From Spiroplasma endosymbiont of Dioctria linearis (lineage in GTDB: Bacteria; Bacillota_I; Bacilli_A; Mycoplasmatales; Mycoplasmataceae): DNA of 64,000 bases. Position 1 is the stretch's first letter, and each line of letters starts with the position of its first letter. The notes below the pieces were generated by a model, which ran no database searches, was not told the origin of the DNA, and was given only the letters and a program-made list of their open reading frames with translations. The stretch covers positions 248,001 through 312,000 of the forward strand of contig NZ_OZ034984.1 of assembly GCF_964030865.1 (NCBI RefSeq), read 5' to 3'. Of this stretch, positions 1 through 61,392 are shown piece by piece. A program made the position numbers and the translations under genes.

Positions 1-570
1 AATTATTTAATTGATGTTGGACAATCTAATAGTAAAATATTAGATAACTTAGCTAAATTCTCTGTGAATAGTTTAAAGGCTTGACATAAAACAATGGGAG
101 TATCTTATGGTTATGAATATCCAGAATATAATTCTGCTCAGGATTTTTTAATGGTTATTAAAAGCTCAAAACTGACTAATAAATTTGTAGAAAAAGATAA
201 AACAACAGGATATTGAGGAAAATATAACTCATTTAATTTTTATTTAAATCTTGGTTTAAGTGATAAATTTGAATTTACAGAAGATAGATTAAATATGTTA
301 AATCAAGCTAAACTTTCTGAAGATTCAATATACTCAATAGGATTACAACAAAAAGGCCTAGCAAGCGCAACTAATGTATGAAACTATACAGCCTTTAATT
401 GAATTATGGATAAAAATGGAATTAGTTTAGAATGAAATGATAGAGATTATAATATAAACAATAATATTATGCTTTGGGACTTAGGCTATATTAATTTTTA
501 TATTGATTTAGATCAAATTACATTAGGTTCTAAAACATTAGGTCAAAAGGACTTCATTAAATTCATCTAA
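1..570 (+). CDS. MOLPALP-family lipoprotein, C-terminal part (cut by window start)
   Basis: Open from base 1 with several TGA codons read as Trp, ending at TAA. The 189 visible residues match the C-terminal third of the lipoprotein at 26253: a stretch like FSVNSLKAWHKTMGVSYGY, a PEYNS segment, and a final LGYINFYIDLDQI block that recurs at the end of every MOLPALP copy here. The start, signal peptide and lipobox lie outside the window. By homology it is a surface-anchored lipoprotein of unknown ligand. It is followed by a ruined permease gene in the order seen in the two intact cassettes, so it was probably the first gene of a lipoprotein-permease-ATPase operon. Confidence 0.85.
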
Positions 571-598
571 TAGAATTTTCTATTTAATGAAAAAATTA

Positions 599-1015
599 TA
601 TAAGGAATTTAAATAATCAAATATAGTTTTAAATCTATTATAAAAGAGAGGTCTTTTATAATATTTAATGGACTATATTTTTTATTTTTATTGCTCCTTG
701 CAGTTTACTCACTTTTTCAAAGAAATAATAGTAATTTCCTATTAATTTTTTAATTACTTTGTTTTATTAACTGTATCTATAATATTATTTATTTTATGTC
801 TTTAGAAGTTTTTTATTTCAAATAATTTTTCTTATTAATATCTCTATTTGCAAATATTCAAGTATCAACAATAATTGACACACTAATATTATCAAGTACA
901 TTTATTACTAATTTACTTTATACTTTTTTAATACAAGCAGAATAAAATAAGAGTCTAATTTTTTTATAAAAATGATAATAGTACTATGGTAGTTAGCGAA
1001 ATATATGACTTTAAA
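599..1015 (+). pseudogene. Decayed ABC permease of the MOLPALP cassette
   Basis: The sequence follows the intact permease at 28119 from its segment FSFKLIIKERSFLIFNGLY onward, then past a deletion to the part matching SLFANIQVSTI, the FISNLPYTFLIQGEE region and the VNEVYDSYDLK region. Frames are broken by stops (for example TAA near 749) and by internal deletion, so no functional product is expected. It shows that a third copy of the lipoprotein-permease cassette once stood here. Confidence 0.75.
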
Positions 1016-1211
1016 TGGACTTAAAAAAGATAAGAAGATAAATAAAAATTTGGAAGAGATGTCTGTAGTTGAAATAAAAAAGGAAAATAAATTGTTAAGT
1101 GAAGAGATAATTAATATGCAAGAGAAAATTGAAGAATTTCAAGAAAATGTTGAAGTACTTGAAGATCAAGTTCAAGTATTAAAAGAAAAATTAATATTTA
1201 TTATACATTAA
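1005..1211 (+). pseudogene. Coiled-coil ORF fragment at the end of the permease remnant
   Basis: A 68-residue frame, very rich in Glu/Lys with heptad leucines, ends just before a T16 tract. It begins inside the permease remnant and has no clear ribosome binding site. The coiled coil is like those in the OrfA of IS3-type elements, but no motif identifies it. Most likely a fused fragment left by rearrangement; a real small protein cannot be excluded. Confidence 0.25.
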
Positions 1212-1218
1212 TATTGCA

Positions 1219-1234
1219 TTTTTTTTTTTTTTTT
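1219..1234. repeat. T16 homopolymer tract upstream of lipoprotein gene
   Basis: Sixteen consecutive T bases about 140 bp before the start of the lipoprotein at 1376. Tracts of this length are prone to slippage; four others of 15-17 bases occur in this window, all in intergenic regions. Confidence 0.9.
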
Positions 1235-26042: not shown

Positions 26043-26252
26043 TTAAAAAGAAATGAAAAAAAAAAAAAAAATTATTTGATCAAATTTAACTTATAAGTTT
26101 TTTTGGTATTAATTTAATTGTCACTTAAGTGTTAAAAAATAAAAATTTATAAAACAATTTTTATTAAAATAAATATTCTTTATAAATCTTGCTTTTTTTT
26201 AATTTGTTTCTAAAATCACACTATGATTATAAAAATAATCAGAGGAGAAATT
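26043..26252. repeat. Intergenic region with A16 tract
   Basis: Sixteen A bases at 26056-26071, 182 bp before the MOLPALP lipoprotein. Otherwise AT-rich with no gene; a TATGAT-like box near 26222. Confidence 0.8.
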
Positions 26253-28097
26253 ATGAGAAAATTATTAAGTTTACTAGGTGCAATAAGTATAGTTGCTACA
26301 AGTAGTGCTACAGTAGTGGCCTGTGGAAATAAAGTCGACCCTATTATTGAACCAGGAGTTAATTATGATGAAATAATTAACAATTTAAAAATCGAGGTGG
26401 ATGAAATTTTTTGAAAGCACCTTAATGAGAATGTTTATAAAAACTTAATTGGTTTGCCAGATACAGAAGGACAATTTTATTTCTTAACAAGAAATAAAAT
26501 AATTGAAAATAGTGGTAAGAACTCTGATGAGCTTGATCCTTTTGAATTAGAACAGTTAGAAAAGGATATAAAAAGAGTTTTAGAATACGATCAATTATCA
26601 ACTGACTTAAATAAATTAAAAAGTGTAAATGAATATAAAATTATTTTAAATGATGTTGATAGTTTATTAAAAAATATAATTTTTGACTGAAAGTCATTAG
26701 TAATTAAATCATATGTATCAGAAAATTCAGATAAACTTTACTTAGGAAATGTAATTGTGGATTACAAAATTCAAATTCAATATAAGGGAGAAAAAGATAT
26801 TGAAACTTTTGATATAAGTGAAAATTTTAAATTTACCTCAACAAATAGTGATTCATTAAAAAAAGCAAGTGATGATTTTTATAAAAATATAGCAAAAGAT
26901 TATTTTTCTTCAACAGATTTAGAAGATAGAAAACATACAAATTTAAATTGAGAAGAGCTTAGAGATACTAAAAAATCATATGAAGGTTTTGGTAGAGTTG
27001 ATAAAGAATTTAAAGAATATTACCAAGATAATTCAAAAGATAATGGATTTGAATCTTCAATAGTAAACTTTATTAAAAAAAATTATTTTGAAAAAGTGGG
27101 TAATACATTACCTCTTTCATTTGAAGGAGATCTAATATATAAATCTTCAGAAATGGATAAATATTCTTTATTTAAAACAGTAAATCAATATAGAAAGTAT
27201 GATGATGAAAAAAATATCAAGTTTGACTATAACAGTGATAGTGGAAGAATATTTTTAAACACTATTTTTAGAAATGATCCAAATAATTCTTCTACAAAAA
27301 ATACTTTATTAAGTCAATATTTTACAACTTCTAATTATTCAATTTGAAAAAATGATTTTGAAACTAAAAAAGATAGTTTTATAAAAGAATTAAAGTTGGA
27401 GGAAAATCAAATAAAAGAAACAAATGAGTATAAAAGTTCAGCTGCTTTAGGTTATATTAACTTGACAGGTTTATCAATTAATTTATCTAATGGGATGTAT
27501 ATACATGAGTTGCCAGATTTTAAATTAGCTGTAAATTATTTTGTGAATATTAATCAAAGTGATAATCAGATTTTATCTAACATGTCTGAATTCTCTGTTG
27601 AAACTTTAAAAGAATGACATAAAATTTTTGGAGTTTCACATAATTATAAATATCCAGAGTATAATTCAAAAGAAGATTTATTAATGACTTTAAATTCTTC
27701 AAAACTTACTGAAGAAATAACTGAAAAATTTACTTTACAGGTATGAAACCAAAATAGTACATCTTTCTTTAATGATGCATTTACTTTAAGAGGTAGACCT
27801 TATTTAGCAGAAACTAAGATTAATTTACTTAATAATGCAAACCTTAGTGAAAACTCATTATATAATATGTCAATTAGTGATCTAGAAACTAATTATCACG
27901 GCTGAACATATTCAACTTTTAATTGAAGTGCAAATAAAAAAACTGGTATTAATATTAAAGCAAACGGAAAAAGTGAATTAAGAAATAATAAGGTAATGAA
28001 TTTTACTTTTGGTTATTTTAATTTTCATATTGATTTAGATCAAATTACTATGGGAGCTATGGAACTTGAAGATAAGGAAATAGTTAAATTTATATAA
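26253..28097 (+). CDS. MOLPALP-family lipoprotein, first gene of ABC cassette 1
   Basis: 614 residues after reading TGA as Trp. ATG 26253 (AGAGGAG upstream) begins the lipoprotein signal MRKLLSLLGA with lipobox Cys24. The rest matches the mollicute paralogous lipoprotein family (MOLPALP): an N-terminal helical part (NEIF-H, FLKSVNEYKIILNDVDSL), a middle segment SLYLGNVIVDYKIQIQYKGEKD, LPLSFE, YINLTGLSI, LPDFKLAVNY, and the final FGYFNFHIDLDQI. It is probably the external binding or adhesion part of the transporter encoded by the next two genes; ligand unknown. The permease starts 21 bases downstream. Confidence 0.87.
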
Positions 28098-28118
28098 TAA
28101 AGGGATTGGATAATATTT

Positions 28119-29873
28119 ATGAGAAAAGTGATACCAGGAATATGAATAGTAAAATTTAGTTTTAAATTAATTATAAAAGAAAGATCTTTTTTGATATTTA
28201 ATGGATTATATATTCTGTTCTCTTTATTTATAGCAATTTATTCTATCATTCAAAAAAATATTAGTAACTTCTTAATGATTTTTGATTACTATGTTTTATT
28301 AACAATATTTGTTATATTATTTATTATTTGTTTGCGATTAACTCAGTACTTTTATGTAGCCAAACGTGATGATAAGACTATGAATATAATTGTAACTCAG
28401 CAACTATCAAGAAAAAAATTATTTGCATATCAATTTATTGCATTTATATTATTGATTTTTATTAATTTATTTATTAGCTTTTTATTAATAAACATTATAA
28501 ACATGCTTTTTCTTTTAGAAATTAACTTATTCTTGTTAAGAATAACATTAACTTATTTAATATACTCTTTTATTAGTTGTGTATTTTTAATAAGTTTCTT
28601 TTTACTAATTTCTCTATTCACAAATATTCAAGTTTCTACAATTGTAGCTACTTTAATATTGGCAAGTACATTCATTAGTAATCTTCCATATACTTTTTTA
28701 ATTCAAGGAGAAGAAAGTAAAAATATTTCTTTATCTTATAAGGGAAAAAATACAGTTTTTTCTGTTAATGAAGTATATGATAGTTATGATTTAAAAAAGC
28801 ATGTTTTAAATAAGCAAATGAAATATCCAAACTTAGGTTTTGCTATTTATGAAAATTTTATTAATAATAAATATGAAACAGATCCAAACTCATTGGTTAA
28901 TAATTTTGATTCTGAAAAAAATATTCAAGAAAGAATAGAGTTTTGAAAAAAAATAGGAATTGTTGAAGAAAAAAATCAAATAGTAGACTTTAAAACTCCA
29001 ACAAAAATAATTGCAGCTAATAGTAGCTCAAAGATTTCAAAGTGAAAAGGTGATGAGATTTCTTTTAGATTTGAATTGAAATATAGATTTTTATCTATAG
29101 AAGAATTAAAAAATAAAATTAGTAATAGTAGTGATGAAATAGATAAAAAAAACCTTGAAGAGTTTATTAATTTTACAGAATATATTACTTCTAAATTCAG
29201 TGATTTTCAAAATAAGTTTTATAACTTATTTGATACATTTATTTTATTAAATGATCAGGAAAATATTGAAAAAAATTATATTAAAAACATAACTAAGCCA
29301 GAAGAGGAAAATATTTTATTTGATAGTAAAAATTTATTGGATATTTATCAAAGTTATTTTTCCTATTCAAATAACAAATTAATTTTAGAAAACTCAAAAA
29401 TTAAATCATTAGTGGAAGAGGATTTATTTTTTCCTACAATGTTAAGTGCACGTATATTAGAAAATTATTTTATACGTTATACAAATAATATGGTTATTTT
29501 TGAAAATAGCACTGTAATTAAAAACGAAAATTGAAATAGATATTCAAAGTCAAGAAAAGTATATAATATATTTTTTCAATTAAACTTTATCTCAAATATG
29601 ATGCAAAATTACGCTTATTATGGTGGAAGAAATTATGAAGATATGTGATTTGAATCAGAGAGCTCAAGTAAAATAATTTTTAATAAACAAGATAATTTAT
29701 TTATGGCTAAACCAACTTATACATTTAAACTTAATTCCGAAAATAAAATTGAAACCAATACCTATGAAAATTTTATAGAGCCATATTTTTATATATTATT
29801 ACAATTGGCAATTTCAGTAATTAATTATTATGTGGCAAAATTCAAATTTAAAAAATTGGATTTAGGGGGGTAA
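28119..29873 (+). CDS. ABC-2-type permease with large external domain (cassette 1)
   Basis: 584 residues. Five or six hydrophobic helices fill residues 25-210, with the ABC-2 type segment KRDDKTMNIIVTQQLSRKKLF between helices 2 and 3; about 340 hydrophilic residues follow, probably outside the cell, and a last helix at about 555-575. It shares this plan with the permease at 58603. Partner ATPase begins 4 bases after its stop, partner lipoprotein ends 21 bases before. Likely exports or inserts something, or works mechanically on the lipoprotein; substrate unknown. AAAGGGA precedes ATG. Confidence 0.82.
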
Positions 29874-29877
29874 AATT

Positions 29878-30801
29878 ATGGAAGAAATTATAAAATTTGA
29901 TAATTATACTAAAAAATATAAAAAAAAGATAATTGGCCCTTTAAATTGTTCAATTAAAAAGGCAAGAATCACAGCTTTACTTGGGTCTAGTGGAAGTGGA
30001 AAAACTGTTATTTTAAATTCTTTATTAGGAATAATTAAAGATTTTAAAGGTAAGATTGAAATCGAGTCTAGTTCAAGAAAATCAGAAAAATATTATTTAG
30101 TGAATAAAAAAATTGGTTATTATACTCAAATGGATTTTTCTTTATATGTAGTTAGTTCATATAAATTTCTATTGGATATTTGTATTATGATGGGTATTGA
30201 AAAAAAAGAGTCAATTAAAAAAATCGAATATTGAATGAAATATTTTGATATTTGAGAAGCAAAGGATAAATCAATTAGAAGTTTTTCATGAGGAATGAAA
30301 AATCGTATGAATCTGATATTATGCTTTATCAAAGATCCAGAAATTATTATTCTTGATGAACCTGGAGCAAATCTTGATTCATATTGAAGAAATAAAATTA
30401 AGACTCTTCTAATAGATGCAAAAAAGGCTGGAAAAACTGTTGTGATAACAGTTCACAACATTGATGAAATAGCAGACATTATTGATGATTTTATAATTAT
30501 TGATGATGGAAAAAATATTTTTAATGGATCTACTAAAGAACTAAATGTTTATGCAAAATATAAGTTATATGTAAATGAGAAGTTTGATGAAAAAGATTTC
30601 AGATTATTTTTAAACGACTTAAATATAAAAACTTTTAAATATGATATCGATGAAAACTCTTTAGTTGTAGCAATTGAAAACTTTAAGCAAATCAATTACT
30701 TATTTTTATATTTAATAAAAAATAATCTGCCATTAAAAAACCTTGTAAAATTACCTATAAATATGGAATCTATTTATAAGGCATTGGAAGCAAAGGAATA
30801 A
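29878..30801 (+). CDS. ABC transporter ATPase with Trp in signature motif (cassette 1)
   Basis: 307 residues. Walker A GSSGSGKT (36-43), Q-loop in YYTQMDFS, signature FSWGM (136-140) instead of LSGGx, Walker B EIIILDEP (Asp160, Glu161), H-loop TVHN (His193). Trp138 is encoded by TGA. The C-terminal 90 residues are an extra domain (NLPLKNLVKLPINMESIYKAL) common in ABC-2-type drug or lipid exporters. It powers the permease upstream. AGGGGGG before the ATG overlaps the end of the permease gene. Confidence 0.88.
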
Positions 30802-30877: not shown

Positions 30878-31110
30878 TTAATAAAATATCCTTCTAAATC
30901 AAATAGTTTTTAAAACAAGTCAAAGTCTATCCGTATATTATTTTTAAAATATTTTCTATTTTTTTTATTAAAAAGTAGAAAATTTTTCAAATATTTGATA
31001 AAATATTTTTGGATAAAGGAGTAAGAATTAAATTAACTACGTAAATATTAAAAATAGCTTTTGCTAAAAAGGGAGTTAGGGTGGGTTATGAAAGAAGGGT
31101 AAAGAAATTT

Positions 31111-32460
31111 ATGAAACTATTATTAGGTTTACTTGGGACAATAGTAATTCCAAGTGCTTCAATATCAAACATAGTAGTTAAAGAACAAATACAAATTAAT
31201 CAAGAAACTTATAGATGAACGGAAATGACAGCGTCAAAAGTTAAATTTAATAATGAAAGGTTAATGCCTGACATTAACTACTCAAATAAAACAGCTTTTA
31301 TTGAGAATTATGATATATGAGATAGTTGAGCATTAATGAATAATGATGGAAGTGTTGCCACTGTAAATGGATATCAAATATGATTTGCTTTATCAAAACC
31401 AGTAGATGGCAGTGGAGAAACAAAAATAATGTATTTTTATTCTGAAACAGGAAGTAATTGAATCCCAGGGGGGTATGTTCTATCTGAAAATTTAGTTAAA
31501 GGTTCAGAGGAATGATCTGGTTCTGCTTTATATGATGAAGATACTAAAGAAGTTAATTTATTTTATACTGTATCTAATCTTACTTATGGTAACAACTGAA
31601 ATCAAAGAATTGCATTAGCAAAAATAAACTTAAATTTTGATGATGTAATTCCAAAATTTGAGAAACCTACTTTTCATAAAATAATTGCGGAAGCTGATGG
31701 GAACTTATATCAAACTCATGAAGCAGCTGAAGCAGTGGGATATGCTAAACAAAAATGAGCTTTTAGAGATCCATTTTACTTTAGAGATCCAAAAACAGGT
31801 CAAGAATATTTATTATTTGAAGGAAATACAGGTTTATTAACTGGTAAAGAAGGCGAACGACTACCTGAATATACTGGTGGTTTTGAAGATTATCCTGACG
31901 ATTATGATTTTGAGAGATCAAATATGGCAAATTCAGCTATTGGAATTGCAAAATTAGATTTAGATAGTGGAGATGTTGAATTATTAAACCCACTATGAGC
32001 TTCAAATTTGGTCTCTGATGAGACTGAAAGACCAAGTTTAATTTATAATAAAAAATTTGATAGATATTATATGTTTACAACAACTCATGGATACTATAAT
32101 ATGAATTTGGCTCCTGGTTTAAATGAAAATGATAGTTTACATGGCTTCACAACAAAAGGAAGTTTATTTGGTGAAATGACTCCTATAAATGAAGATGGTT
32201 TAATTTTATATTCTAAACCTGAAAAAACTGAAATTGAAAATGAGATAGTTTGAAATGAGAATTATGCATACGCATGGGGAGTAATCTCAGATAATTTGGA
32301 CTCTGAATATTTATTAACCTTAGCATTTAGCAATTTCTCATCTGATGGTAAAAATGAATTGAAAAAAATAAGAGGAGCAGCTCCAAGTTTATTATTAAAA
32401 ATCGTGGATGATAAAATATTAATAGAAGAGGAACTTCTACCAGCTCAAGTTATGAGATAA
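31111..32460 (+). CDS. Secreted GH68 levansucrase/fructosyltransferase-like enzyme
   Basis: 449 residues. GH68 enzymes split sucrose and build levan or release fructose. The three catalytic positions are all present: nucleophile Asp71 in IWDSW, transition-state Asp220 in FRDP, and acid/base Glu306 in DETER. Also typical: EEWSGSA, YLLFEGNTG, ANSAIGIA, and APSLLLKI near the end. Length is normal for the family. The N-terminus (MKLLLGLLGTIVIPSASIS) is a signal-like helix without lipobox Cys, so the enzyme is probably secreted. ATG 31111 is used; GTG at 31081 in frame with GGGAG before it is a possible alternative. It stands alone, with no sucrose PTS beside it. Confidence 0.88.
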
Positions 32461-33260: not shown

Positions 33261-33270
33261 TAAATCATTG

Positions 33271-33315
33271 TTTTTTTTTTTTTTTTTATTATTAATAATT
33301 ATATTTGACTATAAT
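33271..33315 (+). promoter_or_regulatory. T17 tract overlapping the -35 region of rpiR
   Basis: T17 at 33271-33287 lies 23 bases before TATAAT (33310-33315), next to where the -35 box should be, and 40 bp before the RpiR start. Length changes would shift promoter spacing. Confidence 0.6.
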
Positions 33316-33326
33316 GGAGGCACAAT

Positions 33327-34061
33327 ATGAAATCTGTTCTAAATCAATTATTCATTAATATAAATATTAATCCAAATTCTGCTAATAATGCTATTTCAAA
33401 GATTTTATTAAAATCTTATTTAACAAAAGTTACACCTAGTATGAAAGAATTGGCTAAGTTATCAAATGTAGCAGAGTCTACAATTTCCAAGTTTTCCATT
33501 TCCCTTGGTTATAAAGGATATAGAGAATTAATTTTTAAAATAAAATTGGAAATATCTGATCGTGAAACTAATCAAAATTTAGACAGTTCTAATAAAAATT
33601 ACTTAGATGTTGAAAAAGAAATAGTTAGTGTTATAAAAGAGTTTAGAAGTTATGAAAATAAAATTGTTAACTCAAAAGCAAGTATAAAAAAATCTAAAAA
33701 AGTATATATATTTTCTTCTTATCAATTTCAATTTGAAGCCTTATTTTTTGCTGAATTAATAAGAAGAAACGGAAAGGAATGTGTTTTCTATACTCAAATG
33801 TTTGATCAAATTAATCAAATAACAAAAGTTGATGAAAATGACTTTGTTATTTTTATTATTGGAGGACAAGATACTAAAACTTTAGAAATGCTTTTAAATG
33901 ATTTTCTATATAGTAATTATTTAGTATTATGTACCCATTCGAAAGTGAATGAATTTAGCAATAAACAAAAAATTATATGTATTGATTCAAAAGAATTAAA
34001 ACATATTTATGAGTATAGAAGCTTTATTTTAAAATATTTATTTCTACAACTTTGTAATTAA
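33327..34061 (+). CDS. RpiR/MurR-family regulator
   Basis: 244 residues. N-terminal HTH_6 domain (TPSMKELAKLSNVAESTISKF-SISLGYKGYREL, about 35-70) and a SIS sugar-phosphate-binding domain (about 110-235) with VYIFSSYQFQFEALFFAELI and VIFIIGGQDTKTLEML. It reads into the PTS and beta-glucosidase genes, so it probably controls them in response to a sugar phosphate. GGAGG is 6 bases before ATG. A second, partial member is at 63502. Confidence 0.88.
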   Translation: MKSVLNQLFINININPNSANNAISKILLKSYLTKVTPSMKELAKLSNVAESTISKFSISLGYKGYRELIFKIKLEISDRETNQNLDSSNKNYLDVEKEIVSVIKEFRSYENKIVNSKASIKKSKKVYIFSSYQFQFEALFFAELIRRNGKECVFYTQMFDQINQITKVDENDFVIFIIGGQDTKTLEMLLNDFLYSNYLVLCTHSKVNEFSNKQKIICIDSKELKHIYEYRSFILKYLFLQLCN

Positions 34062-41515: not shown

Positions 41516-41749
41516 GTATTCTTCAGTATTTTTATAGTAATACAGTTAGTTATAAAATATAGGTGTCTGAAAAAATGGATGTATACCAAAAGAAATGATC
41601 CAAATTCTTAGGAAATAATGTTACTTAGCCCCCCAATACGACTTTAATTATGTAAGTATTGATTATATTTTTCAAAAAAACTCTTGAATTTTTTTATTTT
41701 TTTGTAAAATTAATTTTATATCGTAAAAATAATTTTAAAGGAAAAAAAT
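41516..41749. other. Intergenic region before lipoprotein array
   Basis: Contains TTATAAAATATAGGTGTC near 41550, a relic of the IS3 right end seen at 52925 and 56215. A promoter for the next gene may be TTGAAT (41684) with TAAAAT (41705), spacing short. No gene. Confidence 0.4.
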
Positions 41750-43582
41750 ATGAAAAAATTATTAAGCTTATTGGGAGCTGTTAGTTTAATTGCAACTTCA
41801 AGTGCAAGCGTTGTTGCATGTGGCGATAGTGAGACAGTAAAAGTAGAAAATTACGAATTAATTAAGGCTCTTGAAAAGGATGCTAATGAAATTTTTGTAA
41901 AGCATTTACAAAATAATATTTATGACAAAATGATTGGCTTAACTATTAATGAAAAGGAGAATAAGTTTTTAAATAAAAGCACTATTAAAATATTTAAGGG
42001 CAGATCTGCAAGTGAAATTGGAGAAAAAACCTTAGCTCTTTTAGTTGATGATATTAATAGAATATTAAATATTAGTCAATTAGAATCTGAATTAAATAAA
42101 TTGAAACTTGTTAATGAGTATAGTATTCTTTTAAATGATGTAAATACTTTATACAAGGGGATTGTTTTTGATTGAAGTACTTTAGATATTAATACAAATG
42201 AAAGTGAATCATTATATTTAGGCAATGTTTTATTAGACTTTAAAATACAAGTTCAATACAAAGGTGAAAAAGATATTGAATTATTACAAATTAATGATTC
42301 TTTTAAATATACTCTAACAAATGATGCAACACTAAAAGACTCATCTGATAAATTTTATAAAAATATCACAAAGGATTATTTTTCATCACAAGATTCAGAT
42401 GCTAAAAAATATTCAAATTTAGTTTGAAATGATATTAAGGGTCAAAAAAATAAAATAGATGGCTATGGAAATATTGATAAAGAAATTGACAATTACTGAA
42501 ATAGAACTGCAAGAACAAATGGATTTAAAGACTCTATTGCTAAATTTATTAAAACTAATTATTTTAGTAAATTGCCAACATTGCCTTTATCTTTTGAAAC
42601 AGATAATTTTTATAAGGGTTCAGAATTAAGTAAAACATCTTTATTTCATTCTATTAATACACCAAAAGCATTTAATAATAGCGAATCAATTAAGTTTGAT
42701 TATAAAACTGAAGAAGGTCAATTAATGTTGGAAAGTATTTTTAGAAAAAATCCTGATATTAATCCAACAAGTTTTATATTGAAAAATAATTATTTTACTG
42801 AAAATAATCTTAATGTTTGAAAAAGTGATTATGAAATATCAAAAGAAAATTTCATTAAAAATCTAAATTTAAATTCAAATGATGAGTTTAAACAAACTGA
42901 GCAATATAAAAACTCATTTTCAATGAATTATGTTAACTTAACTGGACTTTCAATTAAATTTCCTGATCAAGAATATGTTCATAATTTACCTGACTTTAAA
43001 ATAGCTACTAATTATATAATTGATTCAAATCAAAGTTCAGAAGCAATTTTAGATGATATGACTGAATTTTCTATAAATTCAATTAAAGCATTTCATGAAG
43101 TTTTTGGTGTTGATTATAGTTATAACTATTTGGAAAATAATAATTCCAAAGAAGATATTTTAATGGCAATTAAGAAATCTGATTTTACAAATGCAATTAA
43201 GTTTAATCAAGCTACTTCTGGCGGTTTAGAGTTAATGAGTCCAGCTCTCTCATTAACTGCAACTGGTTTATCTTCATATAGAGATAAACTATTACAATTG
43301 TCAAATTTACCATCAAATTCAACATATTTATTTGATTCTAGAGAACCGAGCACTAGTAGGGTTTCTGTAGCAGGTTATGGAGGATCTAAATATTATAGAA
43401 ATTATAGCAGTCAAAATGGAATATATTCAACAATACATGACTTGAATTTTAAGCCTAGTATTAAAGATTATAATGAAAAAATATTTTATTGAAAGTTAGG
43501 TTACATAAATATTTACTTTGATTTAGATCAAATAATTGATGGAGGAAGATTTGGACTAAAATACTTTATTGTATTTTCATAA
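41750..43582 (+). CDS. MOLPALP-family lipoprotein, array copy 1
   Basis: 610 residues with TGA as Trp. Signal with lipobox Cys24. From about residue 50 on, nearly identical to the next two copies, while its signal region, promoter and residues 25-45 differ (CGDSETVKVEN against CGGPINPTKPP). Conserved blocks as in the family: LYLGNVLLDFKIQVQYKGEK, LPLSFETDNFYKGSEL, YVNLTGLSIKFPDQEYVHNL, LGYINIYFDLDQI. No ABC genes follow; it is a lone lipoprotein, perhaps sharing the transporter of another cassette or acting as an alternative surface antigen. IS relics follow directly. Confidence 0.87.
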
Positions 43583-44008
43583 ATAATATTTGTATGTTTA
43601 ATTATAAATATAATCTCCAAATTTAACTAGAGAAAAAGGTACCCTAATTTTACCAGTAGTTTTACTACTGGTTTTTTTAATGAAAGGAGAAAATGATAAA
43701 ACAAAATACAGTAAAGAATTAAAGGTAGAGGTTACAAAAAAGTTTAATCCAGCTCATACACCAAAAAATTAGTAGAAGAGTACAATTAGTTTATTTATGA
43801 AATGTAGATAATATTAGCCCTTTCATAAAATCTCAATTTATTGATTATAAAGGAGGAAAAAGTATCTTGTTAATATGTAGGTACATAATCGCTTATTACT
43901 CATATATTACAATACTTATATGTGTCAAAAATTTGAAAATTAGCTAGTTTTAAAGTATAATAAGTTTAGTTTTGAATTGTCAAAACATAGGTACATAAGG
44001 GGAAAAAT
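43583..44008. mobile_element. Nested IS relics and promoter between lipoprotein copies
   Basis: 43639-43800 is the 5' end of the IS3-like element (hairpin CCAGTAGT/ACTACTGG with T7 at 43653-43678, then KYSKELKVEVTKKFN). 43814-43897 is the right end of the ISNCY element. Then the promoter TTGAAA (43933)-17-TATAAT (43956). The relic hairpin is well placed as terminator of the upstream lipoprotein. This stretch is repeated at 45854-46279. Confidence 0.8.
43933..43961 (+). promoter_or_regulatory. Sigma-70-type promoter of lipoprotein copy 2
   Basis: TTGAAA, 17 bases, TATAAT, 48 bases before the ATG. Identical promoters stand at 46204-46232 and 52980-53008. Confidence 0.8.
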
Positions 44009-45853
44009 ATGAAAAAATTATTAAGCCTATTAGGTGCAGTTAGTTTAATTGCAACTTCAAGTGCAAGTGTTGTTGCTTGTGGAGGTCCAATTAATCCAAC
44101 AAAACCTCCAACAGTAGATTATGACAAATTAGTTAAGGATCTTGAAAAAGATGTTAATGAAATTTTTGCAAAGCATTTACAAAATAATGTTTATGAAAAA
44201 ATGATTGGTTTAACTATTAACGAAAAGGAGAATAAGTTTTTAAATAAAACTACTATTAAAACATTTAAGGGTAGATCTGCAAGTGAAATTGGAGAAAAAA
44301 ACTTAGCTTTTTTAGTTGATGATATTAATAGAATATTAGATATTAGTCAATTAGAATCTGAATTAAATAAATTAAAACTTGTTAATGAGTATAGTATTCT
44401 TTTAAATGATGTAAATACTTTATACAAGGGGATTGTTTTTGATTGAAGTACTTTAGATATTAATACAAATGAAAGTGAATCATTATATTTAGGAAATGTT
44501 TTATTAGACTTTAAAATACAAGTTCAATACAAAGGTGAAAAAGATATTGAATTATTACAAATTAATGATTCTTTTAAATATACTCTAACAAATGATGCAA
44601 CACTAAAAGACTCATCTGATAAATTTTATAAAAATATCACAAAGGATTATTTTTCATCACAAGATTCAGATGCTAAAAAATATTCAAATTTACTTTGAAA
44701 TGATATTAAGGGTCAAAAAAATAAAATAGATGGCTATGGAAATATTGATAAAGAAATTGACAATTACTGAAATAGAACTGCAAGAACAAATGGATTTAAA
44801 GACTCTATTGCTAAATTTATTAAAACTAATTATTTTAGTAAATTGCCAACATTGCCTTTATCTTTTGAAACAAATAATTTTTATAAGGGTTCAGAATTAA
44901 GTAAAACATCTTTATTTCATTCTATTAATACACCAAAAGCATTTAATAATAGCGAATCAATTAAGTTTGATTATAAAACTGAAGAAGGTCAATTAATGTT
45001 GGAAAGTATTTTTAGAAAAAATCCTGATATTAATCCAACAAGTTTTATATTGAAAAATAATTATTTTACTGAAAATAATCTTAATGTTTGAAAAAGTGAT
45101 TATGAAATATCAAAAGAAAATTTCATTAAAAATCTAAATTTAAATTCAAATGATGAGTTTAAACAAACTGAGCAATATAAAAACTCATTTTCAATGAATT
45201 ATGTTAACTTAACTGGACTTTCAATTAAATTTCCTGATCAAGAATATGTTCATAATTTACCTGACTTTAAAATAGCTACTAATTATATAATTGATTCAAA
45301 TCAAAGTTCAGAAGCAATTTTAGATGATATGACTGAATTTTCTATAAATTCAATTAAAGCATTTCATGAAGTTTTTGGTGTTGATTATAGTTATAACTAT
45401 TTGGAAAATAATAATTCCAAAGAAGATATTTTAATGGCAATTAAGAAATCTGATTTTACAAATGCAATTAAGTTTAATCAAGCTACTTCTGGCGGTTTAG
45501 AGTTAATGAGTCCAGCTCTCTCATTAACTGCAACTGGTTTATCTTCATATAGAGATAAACTATTACAATTGTCAAATTTACCATCAAATTCAACATATTT
45601 ATTTGATTCTAGAGAACCGAGCACTAGTAGGGATTCTGTAGCAGGTTATGGAGGATCTAAATATTATAGAAATTATAGCAGTCAAAATGGAATATATTCA
45701 ACAATACATGACTTGAATTTTAAGCCTAGTATTAAAGATTATAATGAAAAAATATTTTATTGAAAGTTAGGTTACATAAATATTTACTTTGATTTAGATC
45801 AAATAATTGATGGAGGAAGATTTGGACTAAAATACTTTATTGTATTTTCATAA
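44009..45853 (+). CDS. MOLPALP-family lipoprotein, array copy 2
   Basis: 614 residues. AAGGGG before ATG. Signal with lipobox Cys24, then CGGPINPTKPPTVDY, a short Pro-rich linker. The body is nearly identical to copy 1 (few substitutions, for example Val to Asp in the variable SREPSTSR part) and to copy 3. A product of recent tandem duplication. Same IS-derived hairpin follows as terminator. Function as for the family: external lipoprotein of unknown ligand. Confidence 0.87.
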
Positions 45854-46279
45854 ATAATATTTGTATGTTTAATTATAAATATAATCTCCAAATTTAACTA
45901 GAGAAAAAGGTACCCTAATTTTACCAGTAGTTTTACTACTGGTTTTTTTAATGAAAGGAGAAAATGATAAAACAAAATACAGTAAAGAATTAAAGGTAGA
46001 GGTTACAAAAAAGTTTAATCCAGCTCATACACCAAAAAATTAGTAGAAGAGTACAATTAGTTTATTTATGAAATGTAGATAATATTAGCCCTTTCATAAA
46101 ATCTCAATTTATTGATTATAAAGGAGGAAAAAGTATCTTGTTAATATGTAGGTACATAATCGCTTATTACTCATATATTACAATACTTATATGTGTCAAA
46201 AATTTGAAAATTAGCTAGTTTTAAAGTATAATAAGTTTAGTTTTGAATTGTCAAAACATAGGTACATAAGGGGAAAAAT
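45854..46279. mobile_element. Second copy of nested IS relics and promoter
   Basis: Same as 43583-44008 shifted by 2,271 bp: IS3 relic 45910-46071 with hairpin 45924-45949, ISNCY relic 46085-46168, promoter 46204-46232. Confidence 0.8.
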
Positions 46280-48118
46280 ATGAAAAAATTATTAAGCCTA
46301 TTAGGCGCAGTTAGTTTAATTGCAACTTCAAGTGCAAGTGTTGTTGCTTGTGGAGGTCCAATTAATCCAACAAAACCTCCAACAGTAGATTATGACAAAT
46401 TAGTTAAGGATCTTGAAAAAGATGTTAATGAAATTTTTGCAAAGCATTTACAAAATAATGTTTATGAAAAAATGATTGGTTTAACTATTAACGAAAAGGA
46501 GAATAAGTTTTTAAATAAAACTACTATTAAAACATTTAAGGGTAGATCTGCAAGTGAAATTGGAGAAAAAAACTTAGCTTTTTTAGTTGATGATATTAAT
46601 AGAATATTAGATATTAGTCAATTAGAATCTGAATTAAATAAATTAAAACTTGTTAATGAGTATAGTATTCTTTTAAATGATGTAAATACTTTATACAAGG
46701 GGATTGTTTTTGATTGAAGTACTTTAGATATTAATACAAATGAAAGTGAATCATTATATTTAGGAAATGTTTTATTAGACTTTAAAATACAAGTTCAATA
46801 CAAAGGTGAAAAAGATATTGAATTATTACAAATTAATGATTCTTTTAAATATACTCTAACAAATGATGCAACACTAAAAGACTCATCTGATAAATTTTAT
46901 AAAAATATCACAAAGGATTATTTTTCATCACAAGATTCAGATGCTAAAAAATATTCAAATTTACTTTGAAATGATATTAAGGGTCAAAAAAATAAAATAG
47001 ATGGCTATGGAAATATTGATAAAGAAATTGACAATTACTGAAATAGAACTGCAAGAACAAATGGATTTAAAGACTCTATTGCTAAATTTATTAAAACTAA
47101 TTATTTTAGTAAATTGCCAACATTGCCTTTATCTTTTGAAACAGATAATTTTTATAAGGGTTCAGAATTAAGTAAAACATCTTTATTTCATTCTATTAAT
47201 ACACCAAAAGCATTTAATAATAGCGAATCAATTAAGTTTGATTATAAAACTGAAGAAGGTCAATTAATGTTGGAAAGTATTTTTAGAAAAAATCCTGATA
47301 TGAATCCAACAAGCTTTATATTGAAAAATAATTATTTTACTGAAAATAATCTTAATGTTTGAAAAAGTGATTATGAAATATCAAAAGAAAATTTCATTAA
47401 AAATCTAAATTTAAATTCAAATAATGAGTTTAAACAAACTGAGCAATATAAAAACTCATTTTCAATGAATTATGTTAACTTAACTGGACTTTCAATTAAA
47501 TTTCCTGATCAAGAATATGTTCATAATTTACCTGACTTTAAAATAGCTACTAATTATATAATTGATTCAAATCAAAGTTCAGAAGCAATTTTAGATGATA
47601 TGACTGAATTTTCTATAAATTCAATTAAATCATTTCATGAAGTTTTTGGTGTTGATTATAGTTATAACTATTTGGAAAATAATAATTCCAAAGATGATAT
47701 TTTAATGGCAATTAAGAAATCTGATTTTACAAATGCAATTAAGTTTAATCAAGCTACTTCTGGCGGTTTAGAGTTAATGAGTCCAGCTCTCTCATTAACT
47801 GCAAATGGTTTATCTTCATATAGAAATAAACTATTAGAAAACTCAAATTTACCATCAAATTCAACATATTTATTTGATTCTAGAAGTACTGATGTTGCTA
47901 ATGCTTATGTATCAGGATATGTAGTAAGTAAATACTATAGAAATTATAGTAGTCAAAATGGAATATATTCAACAATATATTACTTGAATCAAAGTAACAA
48001 TAATTATAATGAAAAAATATTTTATTGAAATTTAGGTTACTTAAATATTCATTTTGATTTGGATCAAATAATTGATGGAACAAGAAACGGGCTGAAATAC
48101 TTTATTGTATTTTCATAG
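46280..48118 (+). CDS. MOLPALP-family lipoprotein, array copy 3
   Basis: 612 residues. The first two thirds equal copy 2 almost base for base; the C-terminal part from about residue 510 differs (ENSNLPSNSTYLFDSRSTDVANAYVSGY in place of the version of copies 1 and 2), then the conserved LGYLNIHFDLDQI end. This mosaic pattern implies recombination or a diversified C-terminal region. Ends before a perfect palindromic terminator. Confidence 0.87.
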
Positions 48119-52979: not shown

Positions 52980-53008
52980 TTGAAAATTAGCTAGTTTTAA
53001 AGTATAAT
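52980..53008 (+). promoter_or_regulatory. Sigma-70-type promoter of lipoprotein copy 4
   Basis: TTGAAA, 17 bases, TATAAT; same as in front of copies 2 and 3. Confidence 0.8.
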
Positions 53009-56487: not shown

Positions 56488-56705
56488 TAATTAAAATATT
56501 GTCTCTTATAAAGCAAAGTTAATATTTTTAGTCACACAAATTTGTATGATTTTTTTATATATAATTGATAGATTTATTAACAGTAGAAAAGGTAATCTTA
56601 GGTTTTTAATTATCTATAAGAAAATTCTTTAATATCCATTAATACTCATTATTTTTTCCAAACACTTATATGATACAAATAAAATTTTCTAATAATAATA
56701 CATTG

Positions 56706-56722
56706 TTTTTTTTTTTTTTTTT
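56706..56722. repeat. T17 homopolymer tract upstream of lipoprotein gene
   Basis: Seventeen T bases 80 bp before the lipoprotein of cassette 2, with a TATAAT-like box (GGGTATAATTAAGGAG) between it and the start. Confidence 0.9.
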
Positions 56723-56802
56723 CAATTAATATAAAAATATAACAACTAAAAAGTTATGTACTTATTTGTTTTTTCTTAAAAGGGTATAATTAAGGAGAAA
56801 AC

Positions 56803-58506
56803 ATGAAAAAAATATTAAGTCTATTAAGCGCAATCACTATGGTGGCATCAACAAGTGCCACTGTAATATCTTGTGGAAATAAAAAAGATGATTATAATAA
56901 ACCAGAAGAGGATTCAATTGATTCTTTAATTAAACAATTTAAAGAAGAGGTTAATGAGATTGTTAATACTCATATTAAAGAAAAAAGTAAAAATTTCTTT
57001 ATAGTAGATGAACAAGACAAAAACTCTTTGAAATTCTTTAAAAGAACGAAGTTCTCAAGTTTTATGGGAGATTTAAAAAATAAAAAAGCAGATGATTCAA
57101 TAAGACAAGATGTTATTGATGATTTTTATAGTATTTTAGAAGTTAATGAATTGAAATCAAAAATTAATAATTTGCAAAATTTAGAAAAATATTCAGTAAT
57201 TTTAGGAGATGTTAATTCAGTTTTTAAAGAAATAGTTGTATCTTCAAATGAAAACATTGATTTATCTACTAAATATTCAGCAAGTAGTATTACTGATGTA
57301 ATTTGATTTGGAACAACAAAATTTAATTATTCAATAGCAGTTAATTTTAAAAATAAATTAGGTCAAATTGAAGAATATAAAATATCAGAAGTACCTGCAA
57401 TTATTACTGTAACAGATAACATTGACATTGGAAAAAACATTAAAAATATGTACTCAAATGTTAATGAGCAATTTATAAAAGATGAAGTAAGTAGAATTTA
57501 CTCAAATCAATTAACTTTAAATAGTAAAACTTATTTGGAAAATACAGATAGTGAAATTTTAAGTTATTTAAATAGTCAAAAGGGTATTGAAAAGTTTGTA
57601 CGTTTTATTAAAGCTAAATTTGATCTTAACTTAGAATTAACAAAAAATAACTCATTTAATAATGTATACACTTACCAAACTTATAGAAGTAGTGGATTTA
57701 AATATGATGAAGCTAAAGGAAATGAATTTATTGAAGCTTTCTTTAGAAATAATAGTGATAGTAGTTCATCATATTTGAATGAGACTCAAACTATTTCTGA
57801 TAGTCAATATAAAACTGCAGTAAAAAATAAATTAAATAGTATTTCAAATAATTTAGATCAAACTAGTGAAGTGACTGATTTAATTAATTCTTCTGTAAAG
57901 ATGTTACAAATTAATTTAACCAATTTGGCTTATAAAATTGATGAAGATATCTATGTAGAAATTCCTGATTTAAATTTAGATTTTGGTTATTTTAAAAATA
58001 ACTCAATAACTTCAAGAGAAGAGTTAGAAAGTGACATAATGAATAATATTAATGTTGCAAGAAATGCTTTTAACCAAGTATTTCAAACAACATATACACC
58101 AAATAGTAATTATAAACCAGTATTATTTTATTTTAAAGCAAACTCAAAGGTCTTTAAAGCATGAGATGATTTAGGGATATATGGATCAAGAAATAATATT
58201 AATGAATATACAAATTTAACTAAGCAATCATTAATTGATTATAGAAATCAGCTTTTAAATAGTTCAAAGCAAAGTAACTTTAAATTTAATGTCTCATGAA
58301 GTGCAGATGATAGTGGTGACATGCCTTATGTTGCAAAATATCTAAACAATACAAATAAGTATGAGATTGCTCTTTCAAAAGATGGAAGTTATTCAAAAAA
58401 ATTTAGATTAAGCATCAATCTTGAATTTGATTATTTTAAAATAGAAGTAAATTACAATCAATTTGCCAGTGGACAAAGAATTATTAGTACATCAAATACT
58501 GAATAA
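56803..58506 (+). CDS. Lipoprotein of ABC cassette 2 (distant MOLPALP-like)
   Basis: 567 residues. Signal MKKILSLLSAITMVASTSAT with lipobox Cys24. Overall plan as in the MOLPALP family (N-terminal helical part with EEVNEIVNTHIKE, YSVILGDVNSVFKEIV, MLQINLTNLAYKI, IPDLNLDFGYF), but the sequence is far from the array copies and it has a different C-terminus without the LDQI block. TAAGGAG 6 bases before ATG. Permease follows 96 bases later. It is taken to be the external partner of that transporter. Confidence 0.78.
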
Positions 58507-58602
58507 TTCGCTTAAAAAATTTAAATTTAAAAAGTTGAAAATTTAAATTTTAAATGAGCTTTTAAAAAACAAAAGTATCCTTAAAAAGGAATGGAGATAG
58601 TT

Positions 58603-60441
58603 ATGAATGATGTTAAAAAAAATATAAGCTTTTTTACTATTTTTAAATATCAATTCAAAAGCATAATTAGAGAAAAAACTTTTTTGGTAATGTATTTAAT
58701 TTCAATAAGTTTATCTTTACTAGTTGCAATAGTATTAGCGGCCTTTCCAACATCAGATATGAAAGTTATTATTTTCAACTATTATGTACTCATTCATACA
58801 TGTGCAATTGTAATTCTTATCTCAATGAGACTATTAAATTATTTCTTTTATATTAAAAAAAGCGATAAAACAATAAATATAGTCTCAACTCAACATTTAA
58901 AAAGATCAAAGCTTTTTATTGTTACTAATATAGTAATTTGAGTTTATTGTTTTTTATTATTTGCAATAAACTATTTAATAATTGCTTCATTGAATTTAGG
59001 CAGTCCAGTAGTATTTAAAATTTCAACAGTGTACACAATTTATTTATTTCTAATAGTAATTTTATTGTCAAATTTTATACTATTTTTATTGTCTTTACTT
59101 TCACCTCAAGCCACAATAATTATTATTACTTTAATAATGGCTTTTAGTTTTATTGCCTCTTTACCTTACCAATTTTTAAAAACTTCTGAAAAAACAAAGA
59201 ACTTTTCTTTTTCTGGAAGTGAAGGTAATGTAATTTTAAGAGCTGATAGTGTTTATAATTCATTTGATTTAGTTTCAAATGTTGAAAAATCAAGAATTGC
59301 ATATCCTAATTTGAGTAAGTATATTCTAGATTACTTTTTAGAAAATAAATATAGAATAAGTACAATCGGTTCACAAGAAAATATAAAGAGTAGAAAAGAT
59401 ATTTGAAATGATCTGGGAATTATTGATGATAAACCACTAACTATAAGATTTGATGCAAAGATTTCATCAGTTCCTTTTGATTCTGAAATTTCAGATTGAA
59501 AATATGGAGATGAAATTAGATTGGAGACATATTTAAAATATAAATTTATTAGTGTTGAGGAATTAGAAAATAAAATTAATAATGAGCAAGAAAATAAAGT
59601 TGATGAAAATGGTTATAATAAGTTAAATATTTTAAAAGAGTTATATGAATTTAATCAAAATATAACAAGTTATTTTCCAAATTTTCAGCAGAACTTTTAT
59701 TATCTCTTTGATGACTTTATAGAAATAAATTCTTGTGATAATATTGGTACTTGTTGAGAATCAGTTGATGAACAGGGCAATAGAAAAGCTGAAAAAAATG
59801 GTTATATAGAGTTACTTAATGGAACTAATCCCAACTTAGATAAAAGGGGATTTAAAACTTCCTATTTAAAAGATATTTACCAAAATAATTTTATTAATTT
59901 AAATGGACTAAAAATACAACAAGAAGATGGAATTAGAATAGTTACAACAGATATGGATAGCAATCCTGATAAAACAAATAGAATATTTTCTTCACTTTAT
60001 AATCCTTTAATGATTACAGTTAGAATTTTAGAGGACTATTTTATTAATTACACTTCAAATTATGTAATTGCAACTAATTACACAGTTGATGAAAATTCTA
60101 AAGAGTGAAGTGAGTACATTAAGTCAAGAACTCTTTACAATACTTTTTTTCACTTTAATGTTTTATCTAATTTATTTGTTAATTACACTTATTACTCAGG
60201 TCTAAGTTATAATGATATTTGATTCGATCCAGATGTAAAATCAAATATCTCATTAGATCAACAAAAGAATTTATTATTACCTTATAGTACTTATAACTTA
60301 GTAGTTAAAGATGGTTTAATCGATAAACTTTCATTTGATAAGGGATTTGAACCATATTGATATTTACTAGCCCAGTTTGCAATTACTATAATATTATTCC
60401 TAATTGCATTCTATAAATTTAATGGTGCAGACTTACAATAA
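58603..60441 (+). CDS. ABC-2-type permease with large external domain (cassette 2)
   Basis: 612 residues. ATG 58603 is preferred to 58591 because GGAG is spaced 6 bases from it. Same plan as 28119: helices in residues 28-205, the KKSDKTINIVSTQHLKRSKLF segment, then about 370 hydrophilic residues and a last helix (YLLAQFAITIILFLIAFY). Conserved with the first permease in ASLPYQFLKTSE and YNSFDLV parts. ATPase follows after 15 bases. Confidence 0.82.
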
Positions 60442-60456
60442 AGAGGTTAGATATAA

Positions 60457-61392
60457 ATGGAAAATTTCATTACATTTAATAAATATTTAAAAAAATTTAA
60501 AACTAATAAGGTAGGTCCAATTAGTTTTAATATTCATAAATCAAAAATTACTGCAATACTTGGATCAAGTGGTAGTGGTAAAACTGTGATTTTAAATTCT
60601 CTATTAGGAATAATCAAAAAATATAAGGGAAAGATAGTTATTAATGATATTAATAGAAAATCACATAGTTATCATAAGTCAAATCGTGTAATAGGGTACT
60701 ATACTCAAATGGATTTTTCATTACATGATATATCAGCTTTTAATTTTCTAAAAGATACTGGATTAGTGATGGGAATTAAAAAGTCAAAGATTAATGAAAA
60801 AGTAAAGTACTGAATGCAGTATTTTGATATTTGAGATCATAGAAAAAAAAGAGTTAGAGATTTTTCATGAGGAATGAAAAATCGTATGAATTTAATTTTA
60901 TGTTTTATAAAAGATCCAGAAATTATTATTATGGATGAACCTGGTGCAAATTTGGACTCATATTGAAGAAATAAGGTTAAAAATTTATTAATAGATTATA
61001 AAAAACAAGGTAAAACTGTAATTATTACTGTTCACAATATTGACGAAATTTCAGATATAATTGATAATTATGTAATTTTGGAAACAGGAACAAAAATATT
61101 TGAAGGGTCAAAAAAAAATTTAGGTATTTATTCAAAATATAAAATTTTTATAAAAGATATTTTTGATGTTCAATCTTTTAGAAATTATTTATTACAAGAA
61201 AATATATTATCATTTAAGTTTGATCCTGATGAAAATTCACTAGTAATTGCAGCAGAGACTTATCGTCAAATTAACTATTTATTTTTATATTTAATTAAAA
61301 ATAATTTACCATTAGTAAATCTTATAAAACTGCCAATAAATATGGAATCAATTCATAAAGCTCTGGAAAGTCAAAATAAAATAAAATTATAA
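60457..61392 (+). CDS. ABC transporter ATPase with Trp in signature motif (cassette 2)
   Basis: 311 residues, about two thirds identical to the ATPase at 29878. Walker A GSSGSGKT (36-43), signature FSWGM (136-140) again with TGA-coded Trp, Walker B IIIMDEP, H-loop TVHN. Same C-terminal extra domain ending LPINMESIHKALES. AAAGAGG precedes the ATG. Forms the motor of the cassette 2 transporter. Confidence 0.88.

What the first reader, a model, noticed from the sequence alone, without database searches (positions are those of the whole stretch)
26253..30801. Three-gene system: MOLPALP lipoprotein, giant-loop ABC-2 permease, ATPase
The sequence shows the same gene order twice in full (26253-30801, 56803-61392) and once as ruin (1-1015). 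The permeases carry about 350 residues outside the membrane region, more like a mechanotransmission or surface-assembly machine than a simple exporter. The lipoprotein family is known only as a mollicute paralogous family. Inference: a dedicated surface system in which many alternative lipoproteins (the array at 41.7-56.5 kb) could share two transporter cores.
Basis: partly seen in the sequence, partly recalled or inferred. Interest (0 to 1): 0.8.

Follow-up and report, generated by a model that had tools for sequence, protein, structure and literature searches.

The report
Phase-switched lipoprotein–ABC surface machines
This wall-less bacterium (a Spiroplasma by inference) carries 14 copies of an unnamed three-gene surface machine (a surface lipoprotein, a membrane pump with a large outside part, and its motor), most of them behind a homopolymer promoter that looks built to flip them on and off at random, so that a population may show many different surfaces.

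Summary
The window's two cassettes are 2 of 14 permease–ATPase pairs in this 1.23 Mb genome. The family occurs in 44 of 60 genomes of the taxonomic family. Of 80 flanked permeases, 63 have the lipoprotein and 59 the ATPase beside them.

The lipoprotein is not MOLPALP: TIGR04547 touches only its signal peptide, and the genome's true MOLPALP gene lies elsewhere. AlphaFold gives the permease a NosY/ABCG-type (type V) membrane domain (Z 20.9 to NosY) with about 355 extracellular residues between TM5 and TM6. Neither the ectodomain nor the lipoprotein matched a solved fold.

New here:
- Cassette lipoprotein promoters carry a pure T15–T18 tract as −35/−10 spacer, in eight genomes, never before permease or ATPase (0 of 89). 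Known phase-variable mycoplasma lipoprotein promoters have this layout.
- Lipoprotein residues ~480–580 are hypervariable between near-identical copies.
- In four relatives, 2–7 permeases share one distant ATPase.

Best reading: a clonally variable surface ABC machine acting on its own lipoprotein. Cargo or mechanical task is unknown.

The parts
26189..26216 (+). Promoter-like element of cassette I: TTGCTT, 16-nt spacer with an interrupted T-tract, TAAAAT (a 'locked' version of the poly-T promoter)
   Evidence: Consensus match only.
26253..28097 (+). LP1: 614-aa lipoprotein of cassette I (lipobox Cys24)
   Evidence: (LP_plasma signal, 37 bits); AF2 model pLDDT 87.7, pTM 0.84.
27690..27992 (+). 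LP1 region homologous to the hypervariable segment (codons ~480-580)
28119..29873 (+). PM1: 584-aa type V (ABC-2) permease, ectodomain residues ~200-555 between TM5 and TM6
29878..30801 (+). AT1: 307-aa ABC ATPase; Walker A GSSGSGKT, Q84, signature FSWGMK (LSGGQ variant), Walker B LDEP, H193
56703..56732 (+). Promoter-like element of cassette J: TTG - T17 (56706-56722) - CAAT - TAATAT; candidate phase-variable spacer
56803..58506 (+). LP2: 567-aa lipoprotein of cassette J
58603..60441 (+). PM2: permease of cassette J (ORF opens at 58591)
60457..61392 (+). AT2: ATPase of cassette J
1..570 (+). 3' end of an intact lipoprotein gene (genome 246729-248570) whose permease has decayed
589..1029 (+). 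Permease remnant (stops and frameshifts)
   Evidence: genome 248589-248810 and 248778-249029.
41750..43582 (+). Solo lipoprotein S1 (LP1 subfamily); promoter with interrupted T-tract 41684-41710
44009..45853 (+). Solo lipoprotein S2; ordinary TTGAAA-N17-TATAAT promoter at 43933-43961
46280..48118 (+). Solo lipoprotein S3; same ordinary promoter at 46204-46232; differs from S2 mainly in the C-terminal segment
53058..54890 (+). Solo lipoprotein S4; same ordinary promoter at 52980-53008; divergent C-terminal segment
43187..43489 (+). Hypervariable segment of S1 (codons ~480-580; corresponding segments in S2-S4)
1219..1234 (+). T16 tract upstream of a short gene with an LP-type signal peptide (1376-2050)

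Best explanation
Each cassette encodes one self-contained surface machine. Two AT subunits and two PM subunits form a type V (ABC-2) transporter with a NosY/ABCG-like membrane domain. The ~355-residue PM ectodomain, inserted between TM5 and TM6, sits on the outer face. The lipid-anchored ~600-residue LP is its dedicated partner. ATP turnover at AT is passed through the conserved coupling helix (PM 85-98) to the ectodomain, which acts on LP: most likely it moves or loads LP mechanically, or hands an exported hydrophobic substrate to it. LP presents a hypervariable C-terminal segment outward. In this genome and its nearest relatives many cassettes start with a promoter whose -35/-10 spacer is a pure T15-T18 tract, so slipped-strand mispairing would switch whole LP-PM-AT operons on and off in single cells. 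Duplication and segment exchange diversify LP while PM and AT stay conserved. SHOWN by sequence: co-localisation, co-divergence, membrane fold by prediction, catalytic motifs, tract geometry and enrichment, hypervariable segment, a single family ATPase beside several permeases in some genomes. INFERRED: stoichiometry, the LP-PM contact, direction of transport or force, actual switching, ligand and purpose.
For: Linkage: 63/80 PMs have LP and 59/80 have AT within 2.5 kb on the same strand, median gaps 25 and 6 bp. Co-divergence: Mantel r 0.96 LP-PM, 0.82 PM-AT over 32 triples. Membrane fold: AF2 pLDDT 88.4, pTM 0.83; VIA Z 20.9 to NosY 7znq_Y, 265/269 residues at 3.5 A; ABCG2/G1 Z ~16, PmtD 14.7. 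Catalytic residues are invariant in 9 aligned ATs. PM is most conserved at the coupling helix (50% mean identity) and the membrane-proximal ectodomain 436-530 (41%), against 25-35% for the TM segments. Promoter tract: T>=14 within 130 bp upstream of 26/91 LP genes, 22 with TTG-tract-TAnnnT geometry; in eight of the tract-bearing genomes PM 0/43, AT 0/46, other ORFs 4/166. Run lengths in 204 kb of the own genome: 121 of 8 nt, 6 of 9, 1 of 10, none of 11-14, 17 of 15-17. Genome-wide 42 tracts >=14 nt, all 15-17. Close orthologues differ by one T (cassettes M and N: 17 here, 16 in G042). LP segment: tandem copies E/F/G are mostly over 90% identical along LP, but E differs from F and G with 67-73% in parts of codons ~480-580, rising again to 96-100% downstream; PM and AT dN/dS 0.05-0.14, LP 0.39-0.51; repeated in independent pairs. 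Spacer indels switch vlp, maa2 and vmm promoters in mycoplasmas (PMC2268961).
Against: No reads or expression data: tract slippage was not observed inside one strain. In M. agalactiae vpma a T-tract just upstream of the -10 was shown NOT to cause variation (PMC2268961). Cassette I, solos S1-S4 and the Mesoplasma-like genomes (G007-G009, G013) lack an intact tract. 31 other tracts lie outside LP promoters, so the tract is a genome-wide device. A NosY-like membrane fold does not separate mechanotransmission from export. No LP-PM complex could be modelled. Co-duplication alone would also give correlated distances. Assembled homopolymer lengths can be wrong.
Confidence: 0.5

Rival explanations
1. 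A plain type V exporter or floppase: PM-AT moves a lipid, sterol or hydrophobic peptide outward (as ABCG proteins or PmtCD do) and LP is only an acceptor, immunity or retention protein.
For: The same membrane fold is shared with ABCG and PmtD exporters; the best NCBIfam ATPase hits include drrA and lantibiotic-protection families.
Against: The ectodomain is far larger than in ABCG or PmtD, and LP is tightly linked and co-divergent. Nothing identifies a substrate.
Confidence: 0.3
2. A scavenging system: LP captures host lipid or sterol and PM-AT works inward or extracts it.
For: Mollicutes take membrane lipids from hosts (general knowledge); ABCG-like fold; expansion in some genomes of a host-associated genus.
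Against: Known type V transporters are mostly exporters or force machines. The LP model shows no significant lipid-carrier fold (best Z 5.0; SMP and mite-allergen hits only Z 2.4-2.7). 16 of 60 family genomes lack the permease.
Confidence: 0.12
3. The poly-T tract is a fixed promoter element (optimal spacer or bendable DNA), not a switch.
For: Lengths are confined to 15-18 nt, near the sigma-70 spacer optimum; tracts also precede regulator/PTS and other genes; the vpma T-tract precedent.
Against: Pure homopolymers of this length slip readily; cassette I reaches the same spacing with an interrupted tract, so purity is not needed; orthologues differ by 1 nt; runs of 11-14 nt are absent.
Confidence: 0.25
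4. One reading: many lipoproteins exchangeably share two transporter cores.
For: Five intact solo LPs and one LP whose PM decayed.
Against: 14 cores exist. LP and PM co-diverge, and solo LPs cluster with LP1-type cassette LPs.
Confidence: 0.12

Closest known systems
NosDFY(L) copper-enzyme assembly ABC machine (PDB 7o0y, 7znq, 7qba)
   Same: Closest membrane-domain fold (Z 20.9, 265/269 residues); separate ATPase and permease genes; extracytoplasmic partners including a lipoprotein, NosL (my knowledge).
   Different: ~355-residue insert between TM5 and TM6; no NosD, NosL or NosZ relation seen in the family scans of the cassette proteins; no copper link; about 13% identity.
ABCG half-transporters (ABCG1/2/5/8) and PmtCD
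   Same: Type V fold, 6 TM, coupling helix between TM2 and TM3, extra loop between TM5 and TM6 in ABCG.
   Different: ABCG fuses the ATPase and its TM5-TM6 loop is much smaller (my knowledge); no lipoprotein partner.
MOLPALP family lipoprotein (TIGR04547)
   Same: Mollicute paralogous lipoproteins with a similar signal peptide.
   Different: Window LPs match only the signal peptide; true MOLPALP genes lie elsewhere.
Phase-variable mycoplasma lipoproteins (Vlp of M. hyorhinis, Vmm, Maa2)
   Same: Surface lipoproteins with a repeat tract in the promoter spacer.
   Different: There the switch controls lipoproteins without a transporter; here the same promoter layout leads an LP-permease-ATPase operon.
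ECF transporters (shared energising module)
   Same: One ATPase for several membrane partners in G032, G037, G038, G046.
   Different: ABC-2 type fold, not S-component/EcfT; sharing inferred from gene counts only.

Membership tests
ABC transporter, type V (ABC-2) fold | Six TM helices, N- and C-termini cytosolic, coupling helix between TM2 and TM3, fold alignable to solved type V members | tested here: met
   AF2 elements H22-44, H48-84, H86-95, H98-132, H137-167, H170-186, H556-579; Z 20.9 NosY, ~16 ABCG. Pfam ABC2 models hit only 1 of 71 members. Orientation is inferred from the fold.
ABC transporter, type V (ABC-2) fold | Catalytically complete ATPase | tested here: met
   Walker A, Q-loop, Walker B Glu, D-loop and H-loop invariant; signature FSWGMK departs from LSGGQ.
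NosDFY machine | NosD beta-helix partner and nitrous oxide reductase locus | tested here: inconclusive
   No such relation among LP/PM scans against Pfam/NCBIfam; the whole genome was not searched for NosD or NosZ.
NosDFY machine | Mechanical action on an extracytoplasmic client without substrate transport | not testable with these tools
   Needs biochemistry or structure.
MOLPALP (TIGR04547) | Score over the 65-bit cut-off across the family profile | tested here: not met
   LP1 and LP2 have no hit at E<=1; the LP-family hits listed for the own genome cover profile positions 1-44 only.
Bacterial lipoprotein (mollicute type) | Signal peptide with lipobox cysteine | tested here: met
   NF038029 LP_plasma above cut-off for LP1, LP2 and solos; Cys24 invariant in 71 members.
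Phase-variable lipoprotein loci (Vlp type) | Homopolymer tract in the -35/-10 spacer of lipoprotein promoters | tested here: met
   22 of 91 LP genes with TTG-T13+-TAnnnT geometry; 0 of 89 PM/AT genes. Promoter elements are consensus matches, not mapped starts.
Phase-variable lipoprotein loci (Vlp type) | Tract length varies within a clonal population and changes expression | not testable with these tools
   No reads or expression data; only inter-species differences of 1 nt.

The most novel reading that the evidence does not exclude
An energised surface machine that is itself subject to clonal phase and antigenic variation: whole LP-permease-ATPase operons switch by promoter-spacer slippage, LP tips are reshuffled, and in a sister group one ATPase powers a set of interchangeable LP-permease units, an ECF-like division of labour for outward-acting ABC machines in some of the smallest bacterial cells.
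Probability: 0.3. Interest if true: 0.85.

Novelty: new variant of a known kind. Interest (0 to 1): 0.68.

Why it matters
An unnamed transporter family, essentially unmatched by Pfam and NCBIfam and up to 14 copies strong in a 1.2 Mb genome, is a large investment for a reduced symbiont and had no described role in the papers searched. If the promoters switch, these wall-less bacteria vary whole energised machines rather than only coat proteins, and (if the Spiroplasma assignment is right) do so in arthropod hosts without adaptive immunity. That would point to phage, competitor or host-factor pressure. The shared-ATPase genomes offer a natural test of whether type V permeases can share a motor.

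Tried and rejected
Filing LP under MOLPALP: rejected. LP as a relative of the PM ectodomain: hhalign probability 0.2%, no relation seen. Known fold for LP: no convincing PDB match by Foldseek (E>=0.05) or VIA (best Z 5.0), so unresolved rather than new. PDB sequence search: nothing significant. Plasmid-borne copies: none by tblastn. Named organisms through genome contigs: no confirmed hit, so the genus is inferred from code 4, ~23% GC and the spiralin-type signal. Presence outside the order: none in a sample of the class. Sigma-70 scans around cassette I: no excess over shuffles, which is why only the tract geometry was used. Repeats inside the cassettes: nothing beyond AT-rich chance matches. 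Consistently split permeases in the Citri-like genomes: an effect of profile hits; single ORFs of ~560-620 aa exist.
Full report
WHAT IS THERE. With genetic code 4 the window encodes two intact cassettes: LP 26253-28097, PM 28119-29873, AT 29878-30801; and LP 56803-58506, PM 58603-60441, AT 60457-61392. The window is bases 248001-312000 of a single 1,230,581-base contig. Searching that genome finds 14 ATPases of this family at 59-99% identity; the next ABC ATPases drop to 34% and below. It finds 14 permeases paired with them and 19 LP-family genes (one broken) plus one remnant, of which five are solo: four in the window array and one at genome 163910. One ATPase copy (genome 329786) has an in-frame stop. 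The 'ruin' at the window start is an intact LP whose permease has decayed.

FAMILY IDENTITY. The permease has essentially no Pfam or NCBIfam family (a single member of 71 hits ABC2_membrane_2 at 1.8e-5). The ATPase is a generic ABC domain, best by drrA, with an unusual signature, FSWGMKNR instead of LSGGQ, in nearly all family members. The lipoprotein hits only signal-peptide models. The MOLPALP label fails: the profile aligns to the first ~40 residues, and the genome's over-threshold MOLPALP gene (405423, 709 aa) is not beside a permease.

DISTRIBUTION AND LINKAGE. The permease profile hits 44 of 60 genomes of the family, 61 of 298 in the order and, in a sample of 296 genomes of the class, only genomes of this family. 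Copy number runs from 1 to 14. Of 80 permeases with flanks, 63 have an LP and 59 an AT within 2.5 kb on the same strand. LP sits upstream, downstream or on both sides. In Mesoplasma-like genomes the order is AT, LP, PM, LP and the ATPase carries a ~600-residue coiled-coil-like tail. Over 32 complete triples LP and PM distances correlate at r 0.96 and PM-AT at 0.82; duplication as a unit explains part of this.

SHARED ATPASE. In G032, G037, G038 and G046 permeases and LPs occur without an adjacent ATPase, and each genome has exactly one ATPase of this family (G037's second hit is an ordinary ABC ATPase at 112 bits). In G032, G038 and G046 it lies in the same housekeeping neighbourhood. G046 has seven permeases to one ATPase, G032 five. 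In the permease tree these copies fall in one group of 15 rows that includes a single linked copy (2 changes against 13 in shuffles), so uncoupling happened about once.

STRUCTURE. AlphaFold2 on 71 sequences gives a confident permease (pLDDT 88.4, pTM 0.83). Foldseek and VIA place the membrane domain with NosY (Z 20.9, 265 of 269 residues, 3.5 A), then ABCG proteins (Z ~16) and PmtD (14.7). The ectodomain lies between TM5 and TM6. The most conserved stretches are the coupling helix and the membrane-proximal part of the ectodomain, residues 436-530. The LP model is also confident (pLDDT 87.7) but finds no solved relative, and it is not related to the PM ectodomain by profile.

PROMOTER SWITCH. 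While checking upstream regions I found pure T-tracts directly between a TTG(C/T/A) element and a TAnnnT element, 51-97 bp before the LP start, in cassettes C, D, E, F, G, H, J, K, M and N of this genome and in relatives. Of 91 LP genes, 26 have T>=14 within 130 bp and 22 show the full geometry, in eight genomes. In eight tract-bearing genomes used for the control, none of 43 PM and none of 46 AT genes has such a tract, and 4 of 166 other ORFs do. Run lengths are bimodal: they fall off to one run of 10, none of 11-14, then 17 of 15-17. The whole genome has 42 tracts of >=14, all 15-17, of which 11 precede LP-family genes; the rest include regulator/PTS operons. Cassettes M and N have 17 Ts here and 16 in G042. 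This is the layout of vlp, maa2 and vmm, where spacer indels switch transcription; but the T-tract of vpma in M. agalactiae was shown not to switch (both from PMC2268961), so switching here is inferred, not shown. Window cassette I has an interrupted tract and solos S2-S4 an ordinary promoter, so these may be constitutive.

HYPERVARIABLE SEGMENT. Tandem cassettes E, F and G are near-identical in PM and AT (dN/dS 0.05-0.14). LP diverges faster (0.39-0.51), with the change concentrated in codons ~480-580, where E against F or G falls to 67-73% DNA identity in three of the 75-column windows and recovers to 96-100% past the gene end. The solo array shows the same break, and so do independent pairs in G042 and G029. 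The Mesoplasma-like pairs show it less. Raised dN and dS together suggest segment exchange rather than point selection alone.

MECHANISM. I commit to a tripartite machine in which the ATPase drives the permease ectodomain to act on its own lipoprotein, displayed clonally through promoter switching (0.5). I rate plain export with LP as accessory at 0.3 and scavenging at 0.12. The shared NosY fold supports 'works like' a mechanotransmitter, not membership in NosDFY.

LIMITS. No reads, expression or co-folding were available. The host genus is inferred.

Noticed in passing
window 33268-33315: TTG-T17 tract ahead of an RpiR-like regulator (33327-34061) leading a PTS and glycosidase operon; similar tracts precede other regulator/PTS genes (e.g. 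genome 340738), so sugar-uptake operons may be under the same kind of promoter.
   Followed up: partly
own genome, 42 tracts >=14 nt; window 1219, 21679, 26056, 33271, 56706: Homopolymer lengths are bimodal: almost none of 10-14 nt and a sharp class of 15-17 nt genome-wide.
   Followed up: partly
window 31081-32460: Secreted-looking GH68 levansucrase/invertase (Pfam E 3.4e-69), next to cassette I.
   Followed up: no
L075 7267-10137 (G009) and equivalents in G007, G008: The family ATPase is fused to a ~600-residue coiled-coil-like tail in Mesoplasma-like genomes, beside two or three LPs per permease.
   Followed up: partly
window 48401-49771, 50496-51134, 51651-51926: Transposase genes and fragments (IS3-like for the middle one) interrupt the solo lipoprotein array.
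   Followed up: no
L128-L143 (G063, G076, G098, G106, G083, G088, G014, G016 and others): A distant sister family of PM-AT pairs (ATPase signature FSSGMKKR in the copies read), sometimes with a ~530-aa lipoprotein beside them, on the opposite strand in G076 and G106.
   Followed up: partly
L011 4734-5168, L010 9714-10178: Transposase (rve) fragments found just upstream of tandem cassettes D, E and H, a possible driver of the duplications.
   Followed up: no
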